Program-made: the position numbers and the translations under genes
Part shown: piece after piece, positions 1,627-27,955 of the stretch
Layout of the letters: each line of letters starts with the position of its first letter
How positions within the stretch are numbered: position 1 is the stretch's first letter
The notes under the pieces: generated by a model
What the model was told of the DNA's origin: nothing
The model's database searches: none
Seen by the model: the letters and a program-made list of their open reading frames with translations, nothing else
From: Actinomycetota bacterium
GTDB lineage: Bacteria > Actinomycetota > UBA4738 > HRBIN12
Assembly (NCBI GenBank): GCA_021325015.1
Contig: JAJPHY010000072.1
Span: 1-33,529, forward strand
Direction of reading: 5' to 3'
DNA: 33,529 nucleotides

Positions 1627-3018
1627 ATGATCCAGGGACCCCGGGTCGCCGTGATCGGGCTCGACTGCGCCGCGGCCCCGCTCGTCTTCGGCGACCTCGC
1701 CTCGGAGATGCCGAACCTCCACAAGCTGATGAGCGGCGGCCTGCACGGCGAGCTCGACAGCATCACCCCGCCGATCACGGTGCCCGCGTGGGCGTGCTCG
1801 ATGAGCGGCACCACGCCGGGCCAGCTCGGCATCTACGGGTTCCGCAACCGCAAGGATCACTCCTACGACGGCCTGTCGATCGCGACCTCCGAGTCGGTGA
1901 CCGAGCCCGCGGTGTGGGACCTCCTCGGGCGGCGCGGCGGGAGGTCCGTGCTGCTCGGAGTGCCGCCCGGGTACCCGCCCAAGCCCGTCGAGGGCTGGCG
2001 GGTCTCGTGCTTCCTCACGCCGCCCTCGGCCAAGAGCTACACCCACCCGGTGGAGCTCGCGGCCGAGATCGAGGAGGAGCTCGGGGGCGAGCCCTACCTC
2101 TTCGACATCCCCAACTTCCGAGAGAAGGGGATGGAGTTCGTGATGCAGCAGCTGTTCGCGATGACCAAGCGCCGGTTCCAGGTCGCCCGGCGCCTGATCG
2201 TCGACAAGCCGTGGGACTTCTTCATGATGGTCGAGATGGGCCTGGACCGGCTCCAGCACGTGTTCTGGCAGTGCTGGGACCCGGGGCACCCCAAGTACGA
2301 GCCGGGCAACCCGTTCGAGTCGGCCTTCCCCGAGTACTTCCGCTACCTCGACTCCGAGATCGGCTCGCTCCTCGAGCTCATCCCCGACGACGCCGTCACG
2401 ATCGTGATGTCCGACCACGGCGCGCGGCGGATGGAGGGCGGGGTCTGCATCAACGACTGGCTGATGCGCGAGGGGTACCTGAGGATGTCCGAGCCGCTCT
2501 CCGGCGTCACGCCGATCGCGAAGGCCCCGATCGACTGGAGCCGCACCGTGGCGTGGGGGGACGGAGGCTACTACGGCCGCCTGTTCCTGAACGTGAGGGG
2601 CCGCGAGCCGCAGGGCGTGATCGAGCCCGGGCGGTACGAGGAGGTCCGGGACGAGCTGATCGCCAAGCTCGAGGCGGGGACGGGTCCCGACGGCCAGCCG
2701 CTCGGGACGCGAGTGTTCAAGCCGCAGGAGGTCTACCCGGACGTTCGGGGCGTCGCGCCCGATCTCATCGTGTACTTCGGGGACCTGCGGTGGCGCTCGG
2801 TCGGCACCGTCGGCAACCCCGACATCTTCACGCACGAGAACGACACCGGGCCGGACGGAGCCAACCACGATCGAGCGGGGATCTTCGTCATGTCGGGGCT
2901 TCCGGGCCAGCCGACCGGGCGGGTGGAGGGCCTTCGCCTGATCGACGTCGGTCCGACGATCATGGATCTGTTCGGCATCGAGACGCCCGAGGGGGCGGTC
3001 GGAAGGAGCTTTCGGTGA
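1627..3018 (+). CDS. AlkP-superfamily phosphohydrolase/phosphodiesterase (COG3379-like)
   Basis: VAVIGLDCAAAPLVFGDL...TPPITVPAWACSMSGTTPGQLGIYGF, VMSDHGARRM, NHDRAGIFVMSG; no signal peptide. ATG 1627 preceded by gaagga; alternative GTG at 1603. Confidence 0.8.
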   Translation: MIQGPRVAVIGLDCAAAPLVFGDLASEMPNLHKLMSGGLHGELDSITPPITVPAWACSMSGTTPGQLGIYGFRNRKDHSYDGLSIATSESVTEPAVWDLLGRRGGRSVLLGVPPGYPPKPVEGWRVSCFLTPPSAKSYTHPVELAAEIEEELGGEPYLFDIPNFREKGMEFVMQQLFAMTKRRFQVARRLIVDKPWDFFMMVEMGLDRLQHVFWQCWDPGHPKYEPGNPFESAFPEYFRYLDSEIGSLLELIPDDAVTIVMSDHGARRMEGGVCINDWLMREGYLRMSEPLSGVTPIAKAPIDWSRTVAWGDGGYYGRLFLNVRGREPQGVIEPGRYEEVRDELIAKLEAGTGPDGQPLGTRVFKPQEVYPDVRGVAPDLIVYFGDLRWRSVGTVGNPDIFTHENDTGPDGANHDRAGIFVMSGLPGQPTGRVEGLRLIDVGPTIMDLFGIETPEGAVGRSFR

Positions 3019-3650
3019 CGCACCATCCGGAGCAGCGGGGGTTCACCGTCTGGTTCACGGGGCTGTCGGGGGCCGGGAAGTCCACGATCGCCGAGATGCT
3101 CTACCACGAGCTGAAGGCCCGGGGGATGAAGACCGAGATCCTGGACGGCGATGAGGTGCGCAAGAACCTCTCCAAGGGGCTCGGCTTCTCCAAGGAGGAC
3201 CGGGACACGAACATCCTGCGGATCGGGTACGTGGCCCAGCTCCTCACCCGCAACGGCGTGGCCACGATCTGCTGCCCGATCTCGCCGTACCGCGAGACGC
3301 GCGACCGGGTGCGCACGATGATCGGCGAGTTCGTCGAGGTCTACGTGTACGCGACGGTGGAGGAGATCGCCGCCCACCGGGACCCCAAGGGCCTGTACAA
3401 GAAGGCGCTCGCCGGCGAGCTCACGGGGTTCACCGGCGTCGACGACCCCTACGAACCGCCGCTCGCGCCGGAGCTCGTGATCGACACGATGAACGAGACG
3501 CCTCGGGAGTCCCTCCAGCACGTGCTCGATACGCTCGCGAACCTCGGCTACATCCAGGACCCGACGATCCTGGTCGAGGGACCGAAGCTGCACTCGGGGC
3601 TCACCGACCTTCGCGTGACCGAGACCGGCCACGTCGCCGAAGGGCGGTAG
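3015..3650 (+). CDS. cysC: Adenylyl-sulfate kinase
   Basis: GFTVWFTGLSGAGKSTIA (P-loop), LDGDEVRKNLSKGLGFSKEDRDTNILRIGYVA, CCPISPYRETRDRVR, DPKGLYKKALAGELTGFTGVDDPYEPP. GTG start overlaps upstream stop (GTGA); SD ggaaggag. Confidence 0.9.
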   Translation: MTHHPEQRGFTVWFTGLSGAGKSTIAEMLYHELKARGMKTEILDGDEVRKNLSKGLGFSKEDRDTNILRIGYVAQLLTRNGVATICCPISPYRETRDRVRTMIGEFVEVYVYATVEEIAAHRDPKGLYKKALAGELTGFTGVDDPYEPPLAPELVIDTMNETPRESLQHVLDTLANLGYIQDPTILVEGPKLHSGLTDLRVTETGHVAEGR

Positions 3651-3695: not shown

Positions 3696-4151
3696 TCAGC
3701 GGTGGGCGATCTCGTCCCGCGCGCGGGCTCCGTTTCCCGAGGCCGCCTCGAGGTCGGGCAGCACGATGAACGGCCCGGTCTCGGGCGCCGCCGCCCGTGC
3801 GAGCGCCGCCTCGGCCCGCGCGTGCTCCCGGAGGAAGTCCCTGCGGGCCGCCGCGAGCTCGGCGCGGAGGAGGTCGTTCACCCCCTCGCGACGGTCGTTG
3901 GCGTCCTCGGCCTCGAGCCGGCGGGCGGTCTGCGCCTCCAGCCCCTCGAGCAGGGCGCCCGCCTCGGCCCGGAGCTCGAGGGCGAGGGCCTCGGCGCCGG
4001 CGAGCCGGGACTCGAGCTCCCGGACGCGGGCTCGGGCCTCGCGCTCGCGCTCGGTCGCTGCGAGGACCCGAGCGTCCCGCTCGGCGAGCGCGATCCGAAC
4101 GCTCCGCCGCGAGTAGCCGAACAGTCCTCGCCGCAGCCGCGGTCCGTCCAT
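3696..4151 (-). CDS. Coiled-coil protein, DivIVA-like N-terminal hint; unknown function
   Basis: Arg/Glu/Ala heptad-rich ORF; N-term MDGPRLRRGLFGYSRRSVRIALAERDARV; ATG 4151 preceded by gaggtg on the minus strand. Confidence 0.5.
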   Translation of the reverse strand: MDGPRLRRGLFGYSRRSVRIALAERDARVLAATEREREARARVRELESRLAGAEALALELRAEAGALLEGLEAQTARRLEAEDANDRREGVNDLLRAELAAARRDFLREHARAEAALARAAAPETGPFIVLPDLEAASGNGARARDEIAHR

Positions 4152-4254
4152 CGAGCACCACCTCGGAGGTCGGGGGCTTGCGAGCCCGATGATGAGGCCC
4201 GCGCGGGCCGGGTTCAATCACCGTCCGACCAGCCCCCCGGGACGGATCGCGTGG

Positions 4255-4332
4255 TACCTTCCAGACATGTCGGCAGGCTGACGCCCATCCGGTGGTTCCG
4301 GGTGGGCGTCTCGCGCACCTTGGGGGAGACGC
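4255..4332 (+). promoter_or_regulatory. Candidate regulatory leader of guaB3: -10 TACCTT, leaderless uORF MSAG*, two mutually exclusive hairpins
   Basis: TACCTT 4255-4260; ATGTCGGCAGGCTGA 4267-4281; hairpin A 4280-4292/4298-4310 (13 bp incl. one G-U); hairpin B GCGTCTC 4306-4312 / GAGACGC 4326-4332, ending directly before ATG 4333 and covering part of SD GGGGGAG (4322-4328). Confidence 0.45.
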
Positions 4333-5493
4333 ATGGAGATCGAGGTCGGCATCGGTAAGACGGCGCGCCGCGCCTACGGGTTCGACGAGGTGGCGATCGT
4401 GCCGTCCCGGCGCACGCGCGACCCCGACGACGTGGACATCTCCTGGGAGATCGACGCGTACCGCTTCGAGCTCCCGATGATGGCCGCGGCCATGGACGCG
4501 GCCGTCTCGCCGGCCACCGCGATCGAGGTCGGCCGGCTCGGCGGCCTGGCCTGCCTGAACCTCGAGGGCCTCCAGACCCGCTACGAGGATCCCGAGCCGC
4601 TGTTCGAGGAGATCGCCTCGCTTCCCGACGAGAAGGCCACGCGCCGGATGCAGGAGATCTACCGGGAGCCGGTGAAGGAGGAGCTGATCGTCCGCCGGAT
4701 CCGCGAGATCAAGGAAGGGGGCGTGGTCGCCTGCGCCTCGCTCACCCCGCAGCGGGTCCGGCAGTACGCGAACCTGGTGCTCGAGGCCGAGCTCGACCTC
4801 CTGGTGATCCAGGGGACGGTGGTCTCCGCCGAGCACGTGTCGACCCGCACCGAGCCGCTGAACCTCAAGGAGTTCATCGCGACGTTCGACCTGCCGGTCA
4901 TCGTCGGGGGGTGCGCCTCGTTCCAGACCGCGCTCCACCTCATGCGGACCGGCGCGGTCGGCGTGCTGGTCGGCGTCGGTCCGGGAAACGCCTGCACGAC
5001 GCGCGGCGTGATCGGCGTCGGGGTGCCGCAGGCCACCGCGATCGCGGACGCGGCGGCCGCTCGCTCGGAGCACCTGCGGGAGACCGGCCGCTACTGCCAC
5101 GTGATCGCCGACGGCGGCATGCGGACCGGCGGCGACATCGCCAAGGCGATCGCCTGCGGCGCCGACGCCGTGATGATCGGCTCGCCGCTCACCCGCGCGT
5201 ACGAGGCGCCCGGGCGCGGGTTCCACTGGGGCATGGCCACGTTCCATCCGACGCTTCCGCGCGGGGCGAGGGTGAGGACGCAGCAGGTGGCCTCGCTCCG
5301 GGAGATCCTGGTCGGACCGGCGCACGAGAACGACGGCGCGTTCAACCTGTTCGGCGCGCTCGCGACCTCGATGGCGACGACGGGCTACGCCACGATCAAG
5401 GAGTTCCAGAAGGCCGAGCTCGTCATCGCGCCGGGGATCAAGACCGAGGGCAAGACCTACCAGACGCAGCAGCGCGTCGGGATGGGGCATTGA
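4333..5493 (+). CDS. guaB3: GuaB3-family IMP dehydrogenase (no CBS domains)
   Basis: [35 protein letters not shown]..., [53 protein letters not shown]; 386 aa, followed by guaA. Confidence 0.93.
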
Positions 5494-5497
5494 GCGC

Positions 5498-7069
5498 GTG
5501 AGCCCGGACACGACCTCCGAGCGGCCGTCGAAGCGCTCGGAGACGCGCCCGGTCCTCGTCGTGGACCTCGGGGCCCAGTACGCGCAGCTCATCGCGAGAC
5601 GCGTCCGCGAGTGCCGCGTCTACTCCGAGATCGTGCCGCACGACCTGTCGCCGGCCGAGCTGAAGGCCCGGCGGCCCGCGGGGCTGATCCTGTCGGGCGG
5701 CCCGGCGTCCGTGTACGAGCCCGGCGCCCCCTCGGTCGACCCCGGCGTGTTCCGGCTCGGGGTCCCGGTCCTCGGGATCTGCTACGGCCACCAGCTCATG
5801 GCACGCGAGCTCGGGGGCGAGGTCCGCGCGACGGGCCTTCGCGAGTACGGGCGCACGACCCTGGCCGTGGACGAGCCGGGTGTGCTCCTGCCCGATCTGC
5901 CGCCCGAGGACACGGTCTGGATGAGCCACGGCGACGCCGTCACCCGGCCGCCGGAGGGCTTTCGGGTGACGGCCCACACCGAGGCCTCGGGCGTCGCCGC
6001 CATGGAGGACCGGCAGCGGGGGCTATTCGGGGTGCAGTTCCACCCGGAAGTGGCGCACACGCCCCGCGGGCTCGACGTGATGAAGCGGTTCCTCTACGAG
6101 GGATGTGGGCTGCTCCCGGACTGGACGCCGGCCAACGTGATCGAGCGCTCGGTCGCGCGGATCCGCGAGCAGGTCGGGGCGGACGCGGTGGTCTGCGCGC
6201 TCTCCGGGGGGGTGGACTCGGCGGTGGCCGCGCTCCTGGTCCACCGGGCGGTCGGGGACCAGCTGACGTGCGTGTTCGTCGATACCGGGCTGCTCCGCGA
6301 TGGCGAGCCCGAACAGGTCGAGGACGCGTTCTCGCGGCACTTCCGCGTCCCGCTCGTCCACGTGAAGGCCGCCGACCGGTTCGTGGGGCGCCTGGCGGGC
6401 CTCACGGATCCGGAGGCGAAGCGCCGGGCGGTGGGCGAGGAGTTCATCCGCGTGTTCGAGGAGGCCGCGCGACCGCTCGCCGCGCGGTTCCTGGTCCAGG
6501 GGACGCTGTACCCCGACGTGATCGAGTCCGGCTCACGGACCGCGGCCCTTATCAAGAGCCACCACAACGTCGGCGGCCTCCCGGAGGTGATGGAGCTCGA
6601 GCTCGTCGAGCCGCTTCGGGATCTGTTCAAGGATGAGGTCCGGCGCGTCGGGGAGGAGCTGGGCCTGCCGGAGGAGATCGTGGGGCGCCAGCCCTTTCCC
6701 GGTCCCGGTCTTGCCGTGCGCATCGTGGGCGAGGTCACGCGCGAGCGCCTGGAGATCCTGCGAGCGGCCGACCGGATCGTGCAGGAGGAGGTCCGCCGGG
6801 CCGGCCTCCAAGGCGACCTGTGGCAGGCGTTCGCCGTGCTGCTCGCCGACGTCCGGAGCGTCGGCGTGATGGGGGATGGGCGCACGTACCAGCACCCCAT
6901 CGTCCTTCGCGCGGTGACGAGCGAGGACGCGATGACCGCCGACTGGGCCCGGCTGCCCTACGAGGTCCTCGAGCAAATCTCCTCCCGAGTGATCGCCGAG
7001 GTCCGCGGCGTCAACCGGGTCACCTACGACGTCACCAGCAAGCCGCCCGGCACGATCGAGTGGGAGTGA
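5498..7069 (+). CDS. guaA: GMP synthase (glutamine-hydrolysing)
   Basis: [28 protein letters not shown] (amidotransferase), [18 protein letters not shown] (PP-loop), [20 protein letters not shown]-term [18 protein letters not shown]. Confidence 0.98.
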
Positions 7070-16092: not shown

Positions 16093-16153
16093 GGACGAAG
16101 CTTATCGGTCCGGCTGTCCGGGCCGACGTTTGACAGTTGCGCCCGCGCCTCCC

Positions 16154-16168
16154 TAGCGTGCGGCCGTG
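16154..16168 (+). promoter_or_regulatory. Leaderless promoter: TAGCGT-N6-GTG
   Basis: TAGCGT 16154-16159, GTG 16166. Confidence 0.45.
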
Positions 16169-22100: not shown

Positions 22101-22142
22101 CGGATTGACACAATGGGCCGGAACCTGACAGGGAGCGAAGTC

Positions 22143-23225
22143 ATGAGCCATCGAGTCACGTTGATCCCGGGAGACGGGGTCGGCCCCGAGCTCTCCGAGG
22201 CGACGCGCCGGGTGCTGGAGGCCACCGGGGTCGAGTTCGACTGGGACGTCCAGGAGGCGGGCGCCGACGTCGTCGACCGGTACGGCACGCCGCTGCCCGA
22301 GCCCGTGCTCGCGTCGATCCGCGAGACCCGGGTCGCGATCAAGGGGCCGATCACCACGCCGGTCGGCAGCGGCTTCCGGAGCGTGAACGTGGCGCTCCGA
22401 AAGGAGCTCGATCTCTACGCGTGCCTGCGACCTTGCAAGTGGTACCCGGGCGTTCGCTCGCGATACGAGGGCGTCGACATCGTGATCGTGCGCGAGAACA
22501 CCGAGGACCTGTACGCGGGGATCGAGTTCGAGCACGGGACGCCCGAGGCCAAGGACCTGATCGAGCTCGTGGCCGAGAAGACCGGCAAGCGGATCCGCGA
22601 CGACTCGGGCATCTCGATCAAGCCGATCTCGGTGTGGGGGGGCGAGCGCATCGTGCGGTTCGCCTTCGAGCACGCCCGCAGAAACGGTCGCCGGAAGGTC
22701 ACGGCGGTGCACAAGGCGAACATCATGAAGTTCTCCGACGGCCTGTTCCTCGAGACGGCCCGGCGGGTGGCGAAGGGCTACCCCGACGTCGCGTTCGAGG
22801 ACCGGATCGTCGACAACCTCACGATGCAGCTCGTCCAGCGGCCTGAGGAGTACGACGTGCTCGTGCTCCCCAACCTGTACGGCGACATCGTCTCGGACCT
22901 GTGCGCCGGGCTCGTCGGCGGTCTCGGGCTCGCGCCGGGCGCGAACATCGGCGACGAGGCGGCGGTCTTCGAGGCCACGCACGGGAGCGCCCCGAAGTAC
23001 GCGGGGATGAACAAGGTCAACCCGATGGCGATGATGCTGTCCGGCGTCCTGATGCTCCGGCACCTGGGTGAGCGGGAGGCGGCCGATCGCCTGGAGTCGG
23101 CGATCGCCGCGGTGATCGCCGAGGGTCGTTCGGTGACCTACGACATGAAGCCGACCCGCGACGATCCCACCGCCGTCGGCACGTCGCAGGTTGCGGACGC
23201 CGTGATCGAGAAGCTGGAGGGCTGA
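22143..23225 (+). CDS. icd: Isocitrate dehydrogenase, paralog 1 (NADP-type pocket residues K/Y/V)
   Basis: [96 protein letters not shown] gggagcga; in-frame alternative ATG at 22113. Confidence 0.9.
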
Positions 23226-26884: not shown

Positions 26885-27955
26885 TCACCTCCGGGCTCGC
26901 CGCAGGGCCGCCGTGACCGCTCGAGCGACGTCGTCGGTCCTCGCGGTCCCGCCGAGGTCCCGGGTCCGCACCTCGCCCCGCCGCAGCACGTCGTCGACCG
27001 CCGCCTCCACCGCGTCGGCCGCGTCGTCCTCCCCGAGGTGGCGGAGCAGCATCGCCCCGGAGCGAATCATCGCGATGGGGTTGGCGAGTCCCCTCCCGGC
27101 GATGTCCGGGGCGCTCCCGTGCACCGGCTCGAACACCGCGTACTCCCAGCCGAGGTTGGCGCCCGCCGCGAGGCCGAGCCCGCCGACGAGCCCGGCGCAC
27201 AGGTCGGACAGGATGTCGCCGTACAGGTTCGGGAGCAGGAGCACGTCGAACGTCTCCGGATCGTGCGTCAGGCGCATCGAGAGCTGGTCGATCTGCATCT
27301 CCTCGAGGACCACGTCCGGGTGGGCTGGGGCCTCCTCCAGGGCGATCTGGAGGAACAGGCCGTCGGAGAACCGCATGATGTTCGCCTTGTGGCCGAGCGT
27401 GATCCGACGGCGTCCGGTCTCGCGCGCGAACGCGAACGCGAAGCGGACGATCCGACGGGCTCCCGAGACCGAGATCGGCTTCAGCGTGATCCCGGCGTCC
27501 TCGCGGACCTCGTGACCGAGCGCCGACAGGTGCCGGCGGAGCTCGGCGGTTTCCGGCGCGCCTCGCTCGAGCTCGATCCCCGCGTACAGGTCCTCGGTGT
27601 TCTCCCGGATGACGACGAGGTCCACGTTCGGGTAGCGGGTGGGCACGCCGGGGAGCGACCGCGCCGGCCGGACGGCCGCGAACAGGTCGAGCTCATGCCG
27701 GAGGGCGACGTTCACGCTCCGAAAGCCCGTCCCGACGGGGGTCGTGATCGGGCCCTTGAGGGCCACCCGCGATCGCCGGATCCGATCGAGGACCCGGTCG
27801 GGGAGCGTCGCGCCCTCGCGCTCCAGGGCCTCCGCCCCGGCGCGCTCGACCGCCCACTCGAGCCGGACGCCGGTCGCCTCGAGCACGTGGCGCGCGGCCT
27901 CGGTGACCTCGGGGCCGATGCCGTCGCCCGGGATCAGCGTCACCAGGTGCGTCAC
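26885..27955 (-). CDS. Isocitrate dehydrogenase family, paralog 2 (NAD-type pocket residues D/I/A)
   Basis: [105 protein letters not shown]6-GTG. Confidence 0.9.
   Translation of the reverse strand: MTHLVTLIPGDGIGPEVTEAARHVLEATGVRLEWAVERAGAEALEREGATLPDRVLDRIRRSRVALKGPITTPVGTGFRSVNVALRHELDLFAAVRPARSLPGVPTRYPNVDLVVIRENTEDLYAGIELERGAPETAELRRHLSALGHEVREDAGITLKPISVSGARRIVRFAFAFARETGRRRITLGHKANIMRFSDGLFLQIALEEAPAHPDVVLEEMQIDQLSMRLTHDPETFDVLLLPNLYGDILSDLCAGLVGGLGLAAGANLGWEYAVFEPVHGSAPDIAGRGLANPIAMIRSGAMLLRHLGEDDAADAVEAAVDDVLRRGEVRTRDLGGTARTDDVARAVTAALRRARR

What the first reader, a model, noticed from the sequence alone, without database searches (positions are those of the whole stretch)
4255..4335. 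guaB3 leader: leaderless 4-codon uORF plus two mutually exclusive hairpins, one masking the Shine-Dalgarno
TACCTT (4255-4260) lies 6 nt before ATGTCGGCAGGCTGA (4267-4281), the same geometry as leaderless genes elsewhere in this window, giving a putative uORF M-S-A-G-stop. Its stop codon overlaps the base of a 13-bp hairpin A (GACGCCCATCCGG 4280-4292 / CCGGGTGGGCGTC 4298-4310, one G-U). The distal part of A's 3' arm (4306-4310) can instead pair in hairpin B, GCGTCTC 4306-4312 with GAGACGC 4326-4332, which covers the GAG of SD GGGGGAG and ends at the base before ATG 4333. A and B cannot coexist. A ribosome at the uORF stop would block A and favour B (guaB3 OFF); A alone leaves the SD free (ON). 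The upstream gene is divergent, so A is not its terminator. This has the architecture of a translational attenuator or riboswitch on a guanine-nucleotide gene. The pairings are seen directly; the regulation is inference.
Basis: partly seen in the sequence, partly recalled or inferred. Interest (0 to 1): 0.72.

Follow-up and report, generated by a model that had tools for sequence, protein, structure and literature searches.

The report
Start codon plus hairpin before guaB3
In a little-known order of Actinomycetota, the gene for the only enzyme of its type making guanine nucleotides starts its mRNA, by prediction, with a bare start codon (sometimes followed at once by a stop) and, about 12 bases later, a strongly conserved hairpin, which looks like a switch that reads whether a ribosome has loaded rather than which peptide it makes.

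Summary
Promoter spacing, uORF ATG and hairpin A are at the stated coordinates. A covariance model finds exactly one copy, always directly upstream of guaB3, in 21 of the 23 genomes of this order whose guaB3 upstream region could be read, and no other convincing copy in about 400 Actinomycetota genomes. Hairpin A covaries: 99.5% of cells paired, 6 of 11 pairs with two-sided changes, 0/500 shuffles. The 5' ATG is invariant between flanks only 45% identical. The uORF itself is not conserved: it is 1 codon (ATGTAG) in 6 leaders, 4 codons in 3 and 17 or more in the rest, with repeated switches on the tree. ATG-to-stem spacing is fixed (12.2 +/- 0.85 nt, about where an initiating ribosome's leading edge lies); stem-to-guaB3 distance varies (20-63 nt). 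Hairpin B, the SD mask, fails every conservation test, and shortened A and B coexist in the minimum-energy fold. Best reading: a peptide-independent ribosome-occupancy attenuator, in which a 70S on the 5'-terminal AUG competes with hairpin A. No metabolite aptamer is recognised. Termination by A and guanine sensing are inference. New variant of a known kind (5'-uAUG / leaderless-uORF control).

The parts
4252..4260 (+). Extended -10 promoter element TGGTACCTT
   Evidence: TGnTAnnnT conserved in the order (81% pairwise identity); spacing matches a leaderless signature enriched at gene starts in a relative
4267..4269 (+). Invariant 5'-terminal ATG (predicted TSS = 4267); leaderless upstream start codon
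   Evidence: 20/20 aligned leaders carry ATG here, flanks 45% identical; TSS inferred, not measured
4267..4281 (+). Upstream ORF M-S-A-G-stop; only its ATG is conserved
   Evidence: uORF length 1, 4 or 17+ codons in relatives; length classes change repeatedly on the GuaB3 tree
4280..4310 (+). Hairpin A (arms 4280-4292 and 4298-4310, loop 4293-4297); conserved 11-bp core 4280-4290/4300-4310
   Evidence: 99.5% of cells paired, 6/11 pairs with two-sided changes, 0/500 shuffles
4311..4320 (+). Conserved A-poor tail directly after hairpin A (consensus YGCGTNTC); possible weak termination or pause tract
   Evidence: 3.45 T per 10 nt across relatives (only 2 in this window copy) versus 1.2-1.45 after other hairpins in relatives
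4306..4332 (+).
4322..4328 (+). Shine-Dalgarno GGGGGAG of guaB3
   Evidence: G-rich block kept in the aligned short-leader relatives
4333..5493 (+). guaB3 (GuaB3-family IMP dehydrogenase-related protein), only IMPDH-family gene of its type in the class, no CBS domain hit
   Evidence: TIGR01304 555.7 bits; PF00478 without CBS; no canonical IMPDH over cut-off in 28 genomes
5498..7069 (+). guaA (GMP synthase), 4 nt downstream, probably the same operon
   Evidence: spacing
3696..4151 (-). Divergent upstream gene of unknown family, lying between APS kinase (3015-3650, +) and guaB3 in this genome

Best explanation
A guaB3-specific cis-regulatory leader that responds to ribosome loading, not to peptide sequence. 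Shown: a conserved extended -10, an invariant ATG at the leaderless position, a covarying 11-13 bp hairpin starting 11-15 nt after the A of that ATG, a conserved T-enriched, A-poor tail, and a freely variable distance to the guaB3 Shine-Dalgarno. Inferred: transcription starts at the A of ATG; a 70S ribosome can bind this 5'-terminal AUG as soon as it emerges from RNA polymerase; its leading edge (about +15) then covers the foot of hairpin A. With the AUG empty, hairpin A forms completely and lowers passage of polymerase (pause or weak termination at the tail); with the AUG occupied, or the long uORFs translated, A cannot form in time and guaB3-guaA is transcribed. A further guess: since GuaB3 shows no CBS (Bateman) domain, control may lie in expression, and initiation on the 5' AUG could report guanine-nucleotide status.
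For: Covariation of A. One copy per genome, only at guaB3 (the only intergenic module of this kind in 760 kb of two relatives plus the window). ATG 100% identical against 45% flanks. Fixed AUG-stem spacing against variable stem-gene spacing. uORF length and sequence labile: close relatives L005/L006 differ by loss of the stop; no third-position excess of changes in codons 2-4. Same spacing (12 nt) in an unrelated-looking hairpin upstream of guaB3 in G038/G052. Tail has about 2.4 times the T content seen after other hairpins. Published: 5'-terminal AUGs on SD-led mRNAs bind 70S and can control the downstream gene without uORF translation (ptrB; PMC4965119); initiating-ribosome footprints end about 15 nt after leadered start codons in M. 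tuberculosis (PMC9094748).
Against: No TSS, ribosome or expression data exist for these uncultured genomes. Tails lack a true U-tract, and this class shows no T-rich tails at gene ends, so termination by A is unproven. G007 lacks the element and G018 has guaB3 itself leaderless at that place, so the element is dispensable. The long uORFs place the ribosome quite differently from the start-stop form.
Confidence: 0.42

Rival explanations
1. Standby / structured-enhancer module: hairpin A at the ribosome's mRNA entry holds a 70S (or 30S) on the 5' AUG and raises ribosome recruitment to the mRNA, from which guaB3 is initiated. No transcription termination is involved.
For: ptrB precedent where the 5' AUG but not its translation is needed (PMC4965119); hairpins near the start region give ppGpp tolerance in E. 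coli tufA and rnr (PMC7010297); fixed AUG-stem spacing.
Against: Does not explain the conserved tail after A; hairpin-to-guaB3 distance varies from 20 to 63 nt.
Confidence: 0.23
2. Hairpin A mainly protects the 5' end of the mRNA or is a transcriptional barrier for read-through from the upstream APS kinase gene; the AUG is the remnant of an ancestrally leaderless guaB3.
For: APS kinase is co-directional and 100-150 nt upstream in most relatives; G018 guaB3 is leaderless at the same promoter spacing; the best non-guaB3 model hit is a hairpin just 3' of a gene.
Against: A is kept where the nearest called upstream gene is divergent (L001, L007, L009, L015, L019); its position is fixed to the start site, not to the upstream stop; a remnant AUG would not stay invariant between 45%-identical flanks.
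Confidence: 0.17
3. One reading: a ribosome at the uORF stop frees A's 3' arm to form B, which masks the Shine-Dalgarno.
For: B can be drawn in the window and partly in L005 and L006.
Against: B has no covariation and no excess folding; A10 and B5 coexist; most leaders lack a stop overlapping the stem.
Confidence: 0.06
4. Classical metabolite riboswitch for guanine, GMP or GTP.
For: Position upstream of a guanine-nucleotide operon.
Against: No Rfam match at gathering threshold, only weak sub-threshold hits to sRNA families; the conserved RNA is a single hairpin with a variable loop, too simple for known purine aptamers.
Confidence: 0.04

Closest known systems
5'-terminal uAUG on SD-led mRNAs (E. 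coli ptrB and others; Beck, Fleming and Janssen 2016, PMC4965119)
   Same: AUG at the predicted 5' terminus plus a downstream Shine-Dalgarno gene; peptide irrelevant; control through ribosome binding
   Different: Here the AUG is paired with a conserved, covarying hairpin at fixed spacing and is conserved across genera; no RNA data yet
Leaderless polycysteine sORF attenuators of mycobacteria (Canestrari 2020, paper not held; seen as cited in PMC13236596, PMC9094748 and PMC9031893)
   Same: Leaderless uORF at the head of a biosynthetic operon in Actinomycetota
   Different: No conserved regulatory codon run; uORF can be a bare start-stop
Transcription attenuator of ilvB1 in M. tuberculosis (PMC13236596)
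   Same: uORF, stem-loop and biosynthetic gene
   Different: No regulatory codons, no U-tract, no detectable antiterminator
SETI hairpins of E. coli tufA and rnr mRNAs (PMC7010297)
   Same: Hairpin close to the initiation region, proposed link of initiation to guanosine nucleotides
   Different: SETI acts on 30S initiation of the gene itself, with two hairpins; here the hairpin follows a separate 5' AUG

Membership tests
5'-uAUG (leaderless + SD-led) mRNA | AUG at the very 5' end of the transcript | tested here: inconclusive
   -10 to ATG spacing of 6 nt (7 in one) and class-wide leaderless signature; TSS not measured
5'-uAUG (leaderless + SD-led) mRNA | Separate downstream CDS with Shine-Dalgarno | tested here: met
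   GGGGGAG 4 nt before ATG 4333; G-rich block in aligned relatives
5'-uAUG (leaderless + SD-led) mRNA | 70S binding to the 5' AUG | not testable with these tools
   needs toeprinting
Leader-peptide (trp/ilv-type) attenuator | uORF with conserved regulatory codons | tested here: not met
   uORFs of 1 to 30 codons, no codon run, no sign of peptide constraint
Leader-peptide (trp/ilv-type) attenuator | Intrinsic terminator with U-tract | tested here: inconclusive
   3.45 T per 10 nt, tail score 2.18 versus about 1.8 random, but no U-run
Leader-peptide (trp/ilv-type) attenuator | Mutually exclusive alternative stem | tested here: not met
   B not conserved and coexists with shortened A; lower stem also at chance level
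Polycysteine leaderless attenuator | Run of Cys codons | tested here: not met
Metabolite riboswitch in Rfam | Match to a curated aptamer family | tested here: not met

The most novel reading that the evidence does not exclude
A peptide-free start-stop attenuator in bacteria: occupancy of a 5'-terminal AUG (in some species AUGUAG, which can make no peptide) is itself the sensed quantity, so that translation-initiation capacity (IF2-GTP, (p)ppGpp, fMet-tRNA) sets synthesis of guanine nucleotides through the foot of one hairpin, replacing the allosteric CBS-domain control that GuaB3 lacks.
Probability: 0.17. Interest if true: 0.82.

Novelty: new variant of a known kind. Interest (0 to 1): 0.56.

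Why it matters
5'-terminal AUGs on leadered mRNAs are mostly known one by one, with little evidence of selection. Here comparative data from 21 genomes show strong constraint on an AUG-plus-hairpin unit at ribosome-footprint spacing while the encoded peptide is free to vanish. That makes 'ribosome occupancy as signal' directly testable, on a gene whose product makes the nucleotide on which initiation depends. The class has no canonical GuaB, so control of GuaB3 expression may be its main handle on GTP supply.

Tried and rejected
Hairpin B / SD masking: fold shuffles, pair counts, masking of the 5' arm - not conserved. Lower stem between the codon 2-4 region and the GCGTNTC tail: visible in single folds, not above shuffles. 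Conserved leader peptide: codons 2-4 change about equally at all codon positions. Rfam: weak Rhizobiales-2 hit 22.8 bits, gathering score 40, taken as chance. Copies elsewhere in own genome: one other GACGCCC/GGGCGTC match, with fewer matches than the reversed control pattern. Extension beyond the order: 59 further guaB3 upstream regions fetched, plus six already held; only G038/G052 (one genus) resemble it. Class-wide terminator signature: hairpin tails at 3' ends equal random DNA in two genomes. My automatic hairpin finder picked a wrong stem for L007; later calls use curated arms.

Full report
1. Observation. The letters are as reported: extended -10 TGGTACCTT, 6-nt spacer, ATGTCGGCAGGCTGA at 4267-4281, hairpin A 4280-4292/4298-4310, hairpin B 4306-4312/4326-4332, guaB3 at 4333. 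One search confirms GuaB3 (TIGR01304, 555.7 bits) and GuaA. Single-sequence folding is only mildly unusual (z -2.0 and -2.35). In that minimum-energy fold a 10-bp A and a 5-bp B stand side by side, and A13 (-28.1) is nearly equal to A10+B5 (-27.6 kcal/mol), so the strict 'either A or B' does not hold.

2. Relatives. The window belongs to a MAG (G000). 26 relatives of the same family or order were searched and nearly all have guaB3. Upstream regions could be read for 23 genomes including the window's own; G012 and G021 are cut at contig ends, and G014 and G026 have no guaB3 in the assembly. 21 of the 23 show extended -10, 6 nt (7 in one), ATG, about 12 nt, hairpin, tail. G007 has a short plain leader instead; in G018 the guaB3 ATG itself lies at the leaderless distance from TGGTACCGT.

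3. Hairpin A. In 20 aligned leaders the 11-bp core is 99.5% paired; six pairs change on both sides; every measure exceeds all 500 shuffles, and slid controls collapse. A covariance model finds 21 copies above 56 bits, one per genome, all directly upstream of guaB3; the next hits are a reverse-strand echo (31.5 bits) and hairpin-only matches of about 30 bits. In 396 Actinomycetota genomes the only other hit below E 0.001, apart from that echo, is a hairpin just 3' of a gene in G318 (33.8 bits). A direct search for -10, ATG/GTG and hairpin in 760 kb of G008 and G007 and in the window gives guaB3 as the only case that is not simply the start of a called gene.

4. The upstream AUG. Pairwise identity is 45% in the spacer, 100% at ATG and 45% in the next six bases. 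The reading frame behind it is not kept: ATGTAG in L003, L007, L008, L011, L016 and L111; four codons in L001, L004 and L005; 17 to 30 codons in the others, or no stop before guaB3 (L006). These classes interchange on the GuaB3 tree, at least three changes each for the start-stop and the 4-codon class on well-supported branches (the close relatives L005 and L006 differ by one base in the stop). Codons 2-4 show no protein-type pattern. So selection is on the AUG, not on a peptide.

5. Spacing. From the A of ATG to the stem: 12.2 +/- 0.85 nt. From the stem to guaB3: 34 +/- 13 nt. Initiating ribosomes end about 15 nt past leadered start codons in M. tuberculosis (PMC9094748) and toeprints sit at +15 (PMC4965119), so a 70S on this AUG would meet the foot of A. 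That leadered value may not carry over exactly: the same paper did not see the +15 peak at leaderless starts. In G038 and G052 (another family, same phylum) a hairpin of different sequence stands 12 nt after the start of an ATG that follows TGCTAGCGT by 5 nt, again upstream of guaB3. It is one genus, so at most one further origin.

6. Hairpin B and other pairings. B fails in pair counts, fold shuffles and masking. A lower stem joining the start region to the tail also fails. The SD-masking model is therefore not supported.

7. The tail. The ten bases after A hold 3.45 T and 0.5 A on average, against 1.2-1.45 T after other hairpins in G008 and G007; the tail score of 2.18 exceeds random (about 1.8) but there is no U-run, and this class shows no U-tract signature at gene ends. 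In the window copy itself the tail holds only 2 T. Termination or pausing by A is possible, not shown.

8. Context. Leaderless starts are common in this class. Canonical IMP dehydrogenase is absent from all 28 genomes searched (none over the TIGR01302 cut-off), and the window's GuaB3 shows no CBS domain in Pfam; a recent paper treats cyanobacterial GuaB3 as an essential IMPDH lacking CBS pairs (PMC13273366). Expression-level control of guanine-nucleotide supply is therefore plausible. In most relatives APS kinase lies just upstream on the same strand, which leaves a minor role of A for read-through open.

9. Mechanism. I favour competition between a 70S on the 5' AUG and hairpin A (confidence 0.42), because it needs exactly the parts that are conserved (AUG, spacing, stem, tail) and none of those that are not (peptide, stop, B, distance to the SD). 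The main rival is a standby or enhancer role as in ptrB or SETI mRNAs. A nucleotide-sensing input is an inference only, encouraged by reports that (p)ppGpp favours leaderless translation (PMC9031893) and that the initiating ribosome senses guanosine nucleotides (PMC7010297).

10. Known kinds. It works like 5'-uAUG mRNAs and leaderless-uORF attenuators of Actinomycetota, but it fails the defining feature of leader-peptide attenuators (regulatory codons) and of Rfam riboswitches. It is best filed as a new variant of 5'-uAUG control, with a new conserved RNA hairpin that has no Rfam entry. The literature search covered open-licence papers only; several key papers (Canestrari 2020, D'Halluin 2023, Beck and Janssen 2017) were not held.

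Noticed in passing
G000 and 27 relatives: No canonical IMP dehydrogenase (TIGR01302 over cut-off) anywhere in the class; GuaB3, lacking CBS domains, appears to be its only IMPDH.
   Followed up: partly
L061, L084, L088, L097, L099, L221, L224 (guaB3 upstream regions of Solirubrobacterales-type genomes): A different conserved arrangement: a GTG at leaderless distance followed by GTTGCCGCCGCCAC-like sequence, a terminator-like hairpin with TCTTTTCGTCC, then TAGGAT 6 nt before the guaB3 ATG, suggesting a leaderless guaB3 behind a terminated small transcript.
   Followed up: partly
L112 (G018): guaB3 itself sits at leaderless distance from the same extended -10, as if uORF and hairpin had been lost, or inserted in the others.
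   Followed up: partly
window 16153-16168: purN (16166) has TAGCGT and a 6-nt spacer before its GTG, so it is probably leaderless.
   Followed up: no
window 22113-23225 (+) and 26885-27955 (-): Two isocitrate/isopropylmalate-dehydrogenase-like genes about 4 kb apart on opposite strands.
   Followed up: no
L164:1261-1315 (G318): Hairpin with the same core (AACGCCCATCCGG) and a TTTCGCGTTCC tail just 3' of an unrelated gene, apparently a bidirectional terminator; the closest sequence parallel to hairpin A.
   Followed up: partly
L090 and L092: Records titled Bifidobacterium breve whose guaB3 and leader look like those of Solirubrobacterales; probably mislabelled MAGs.
   Followed up: no
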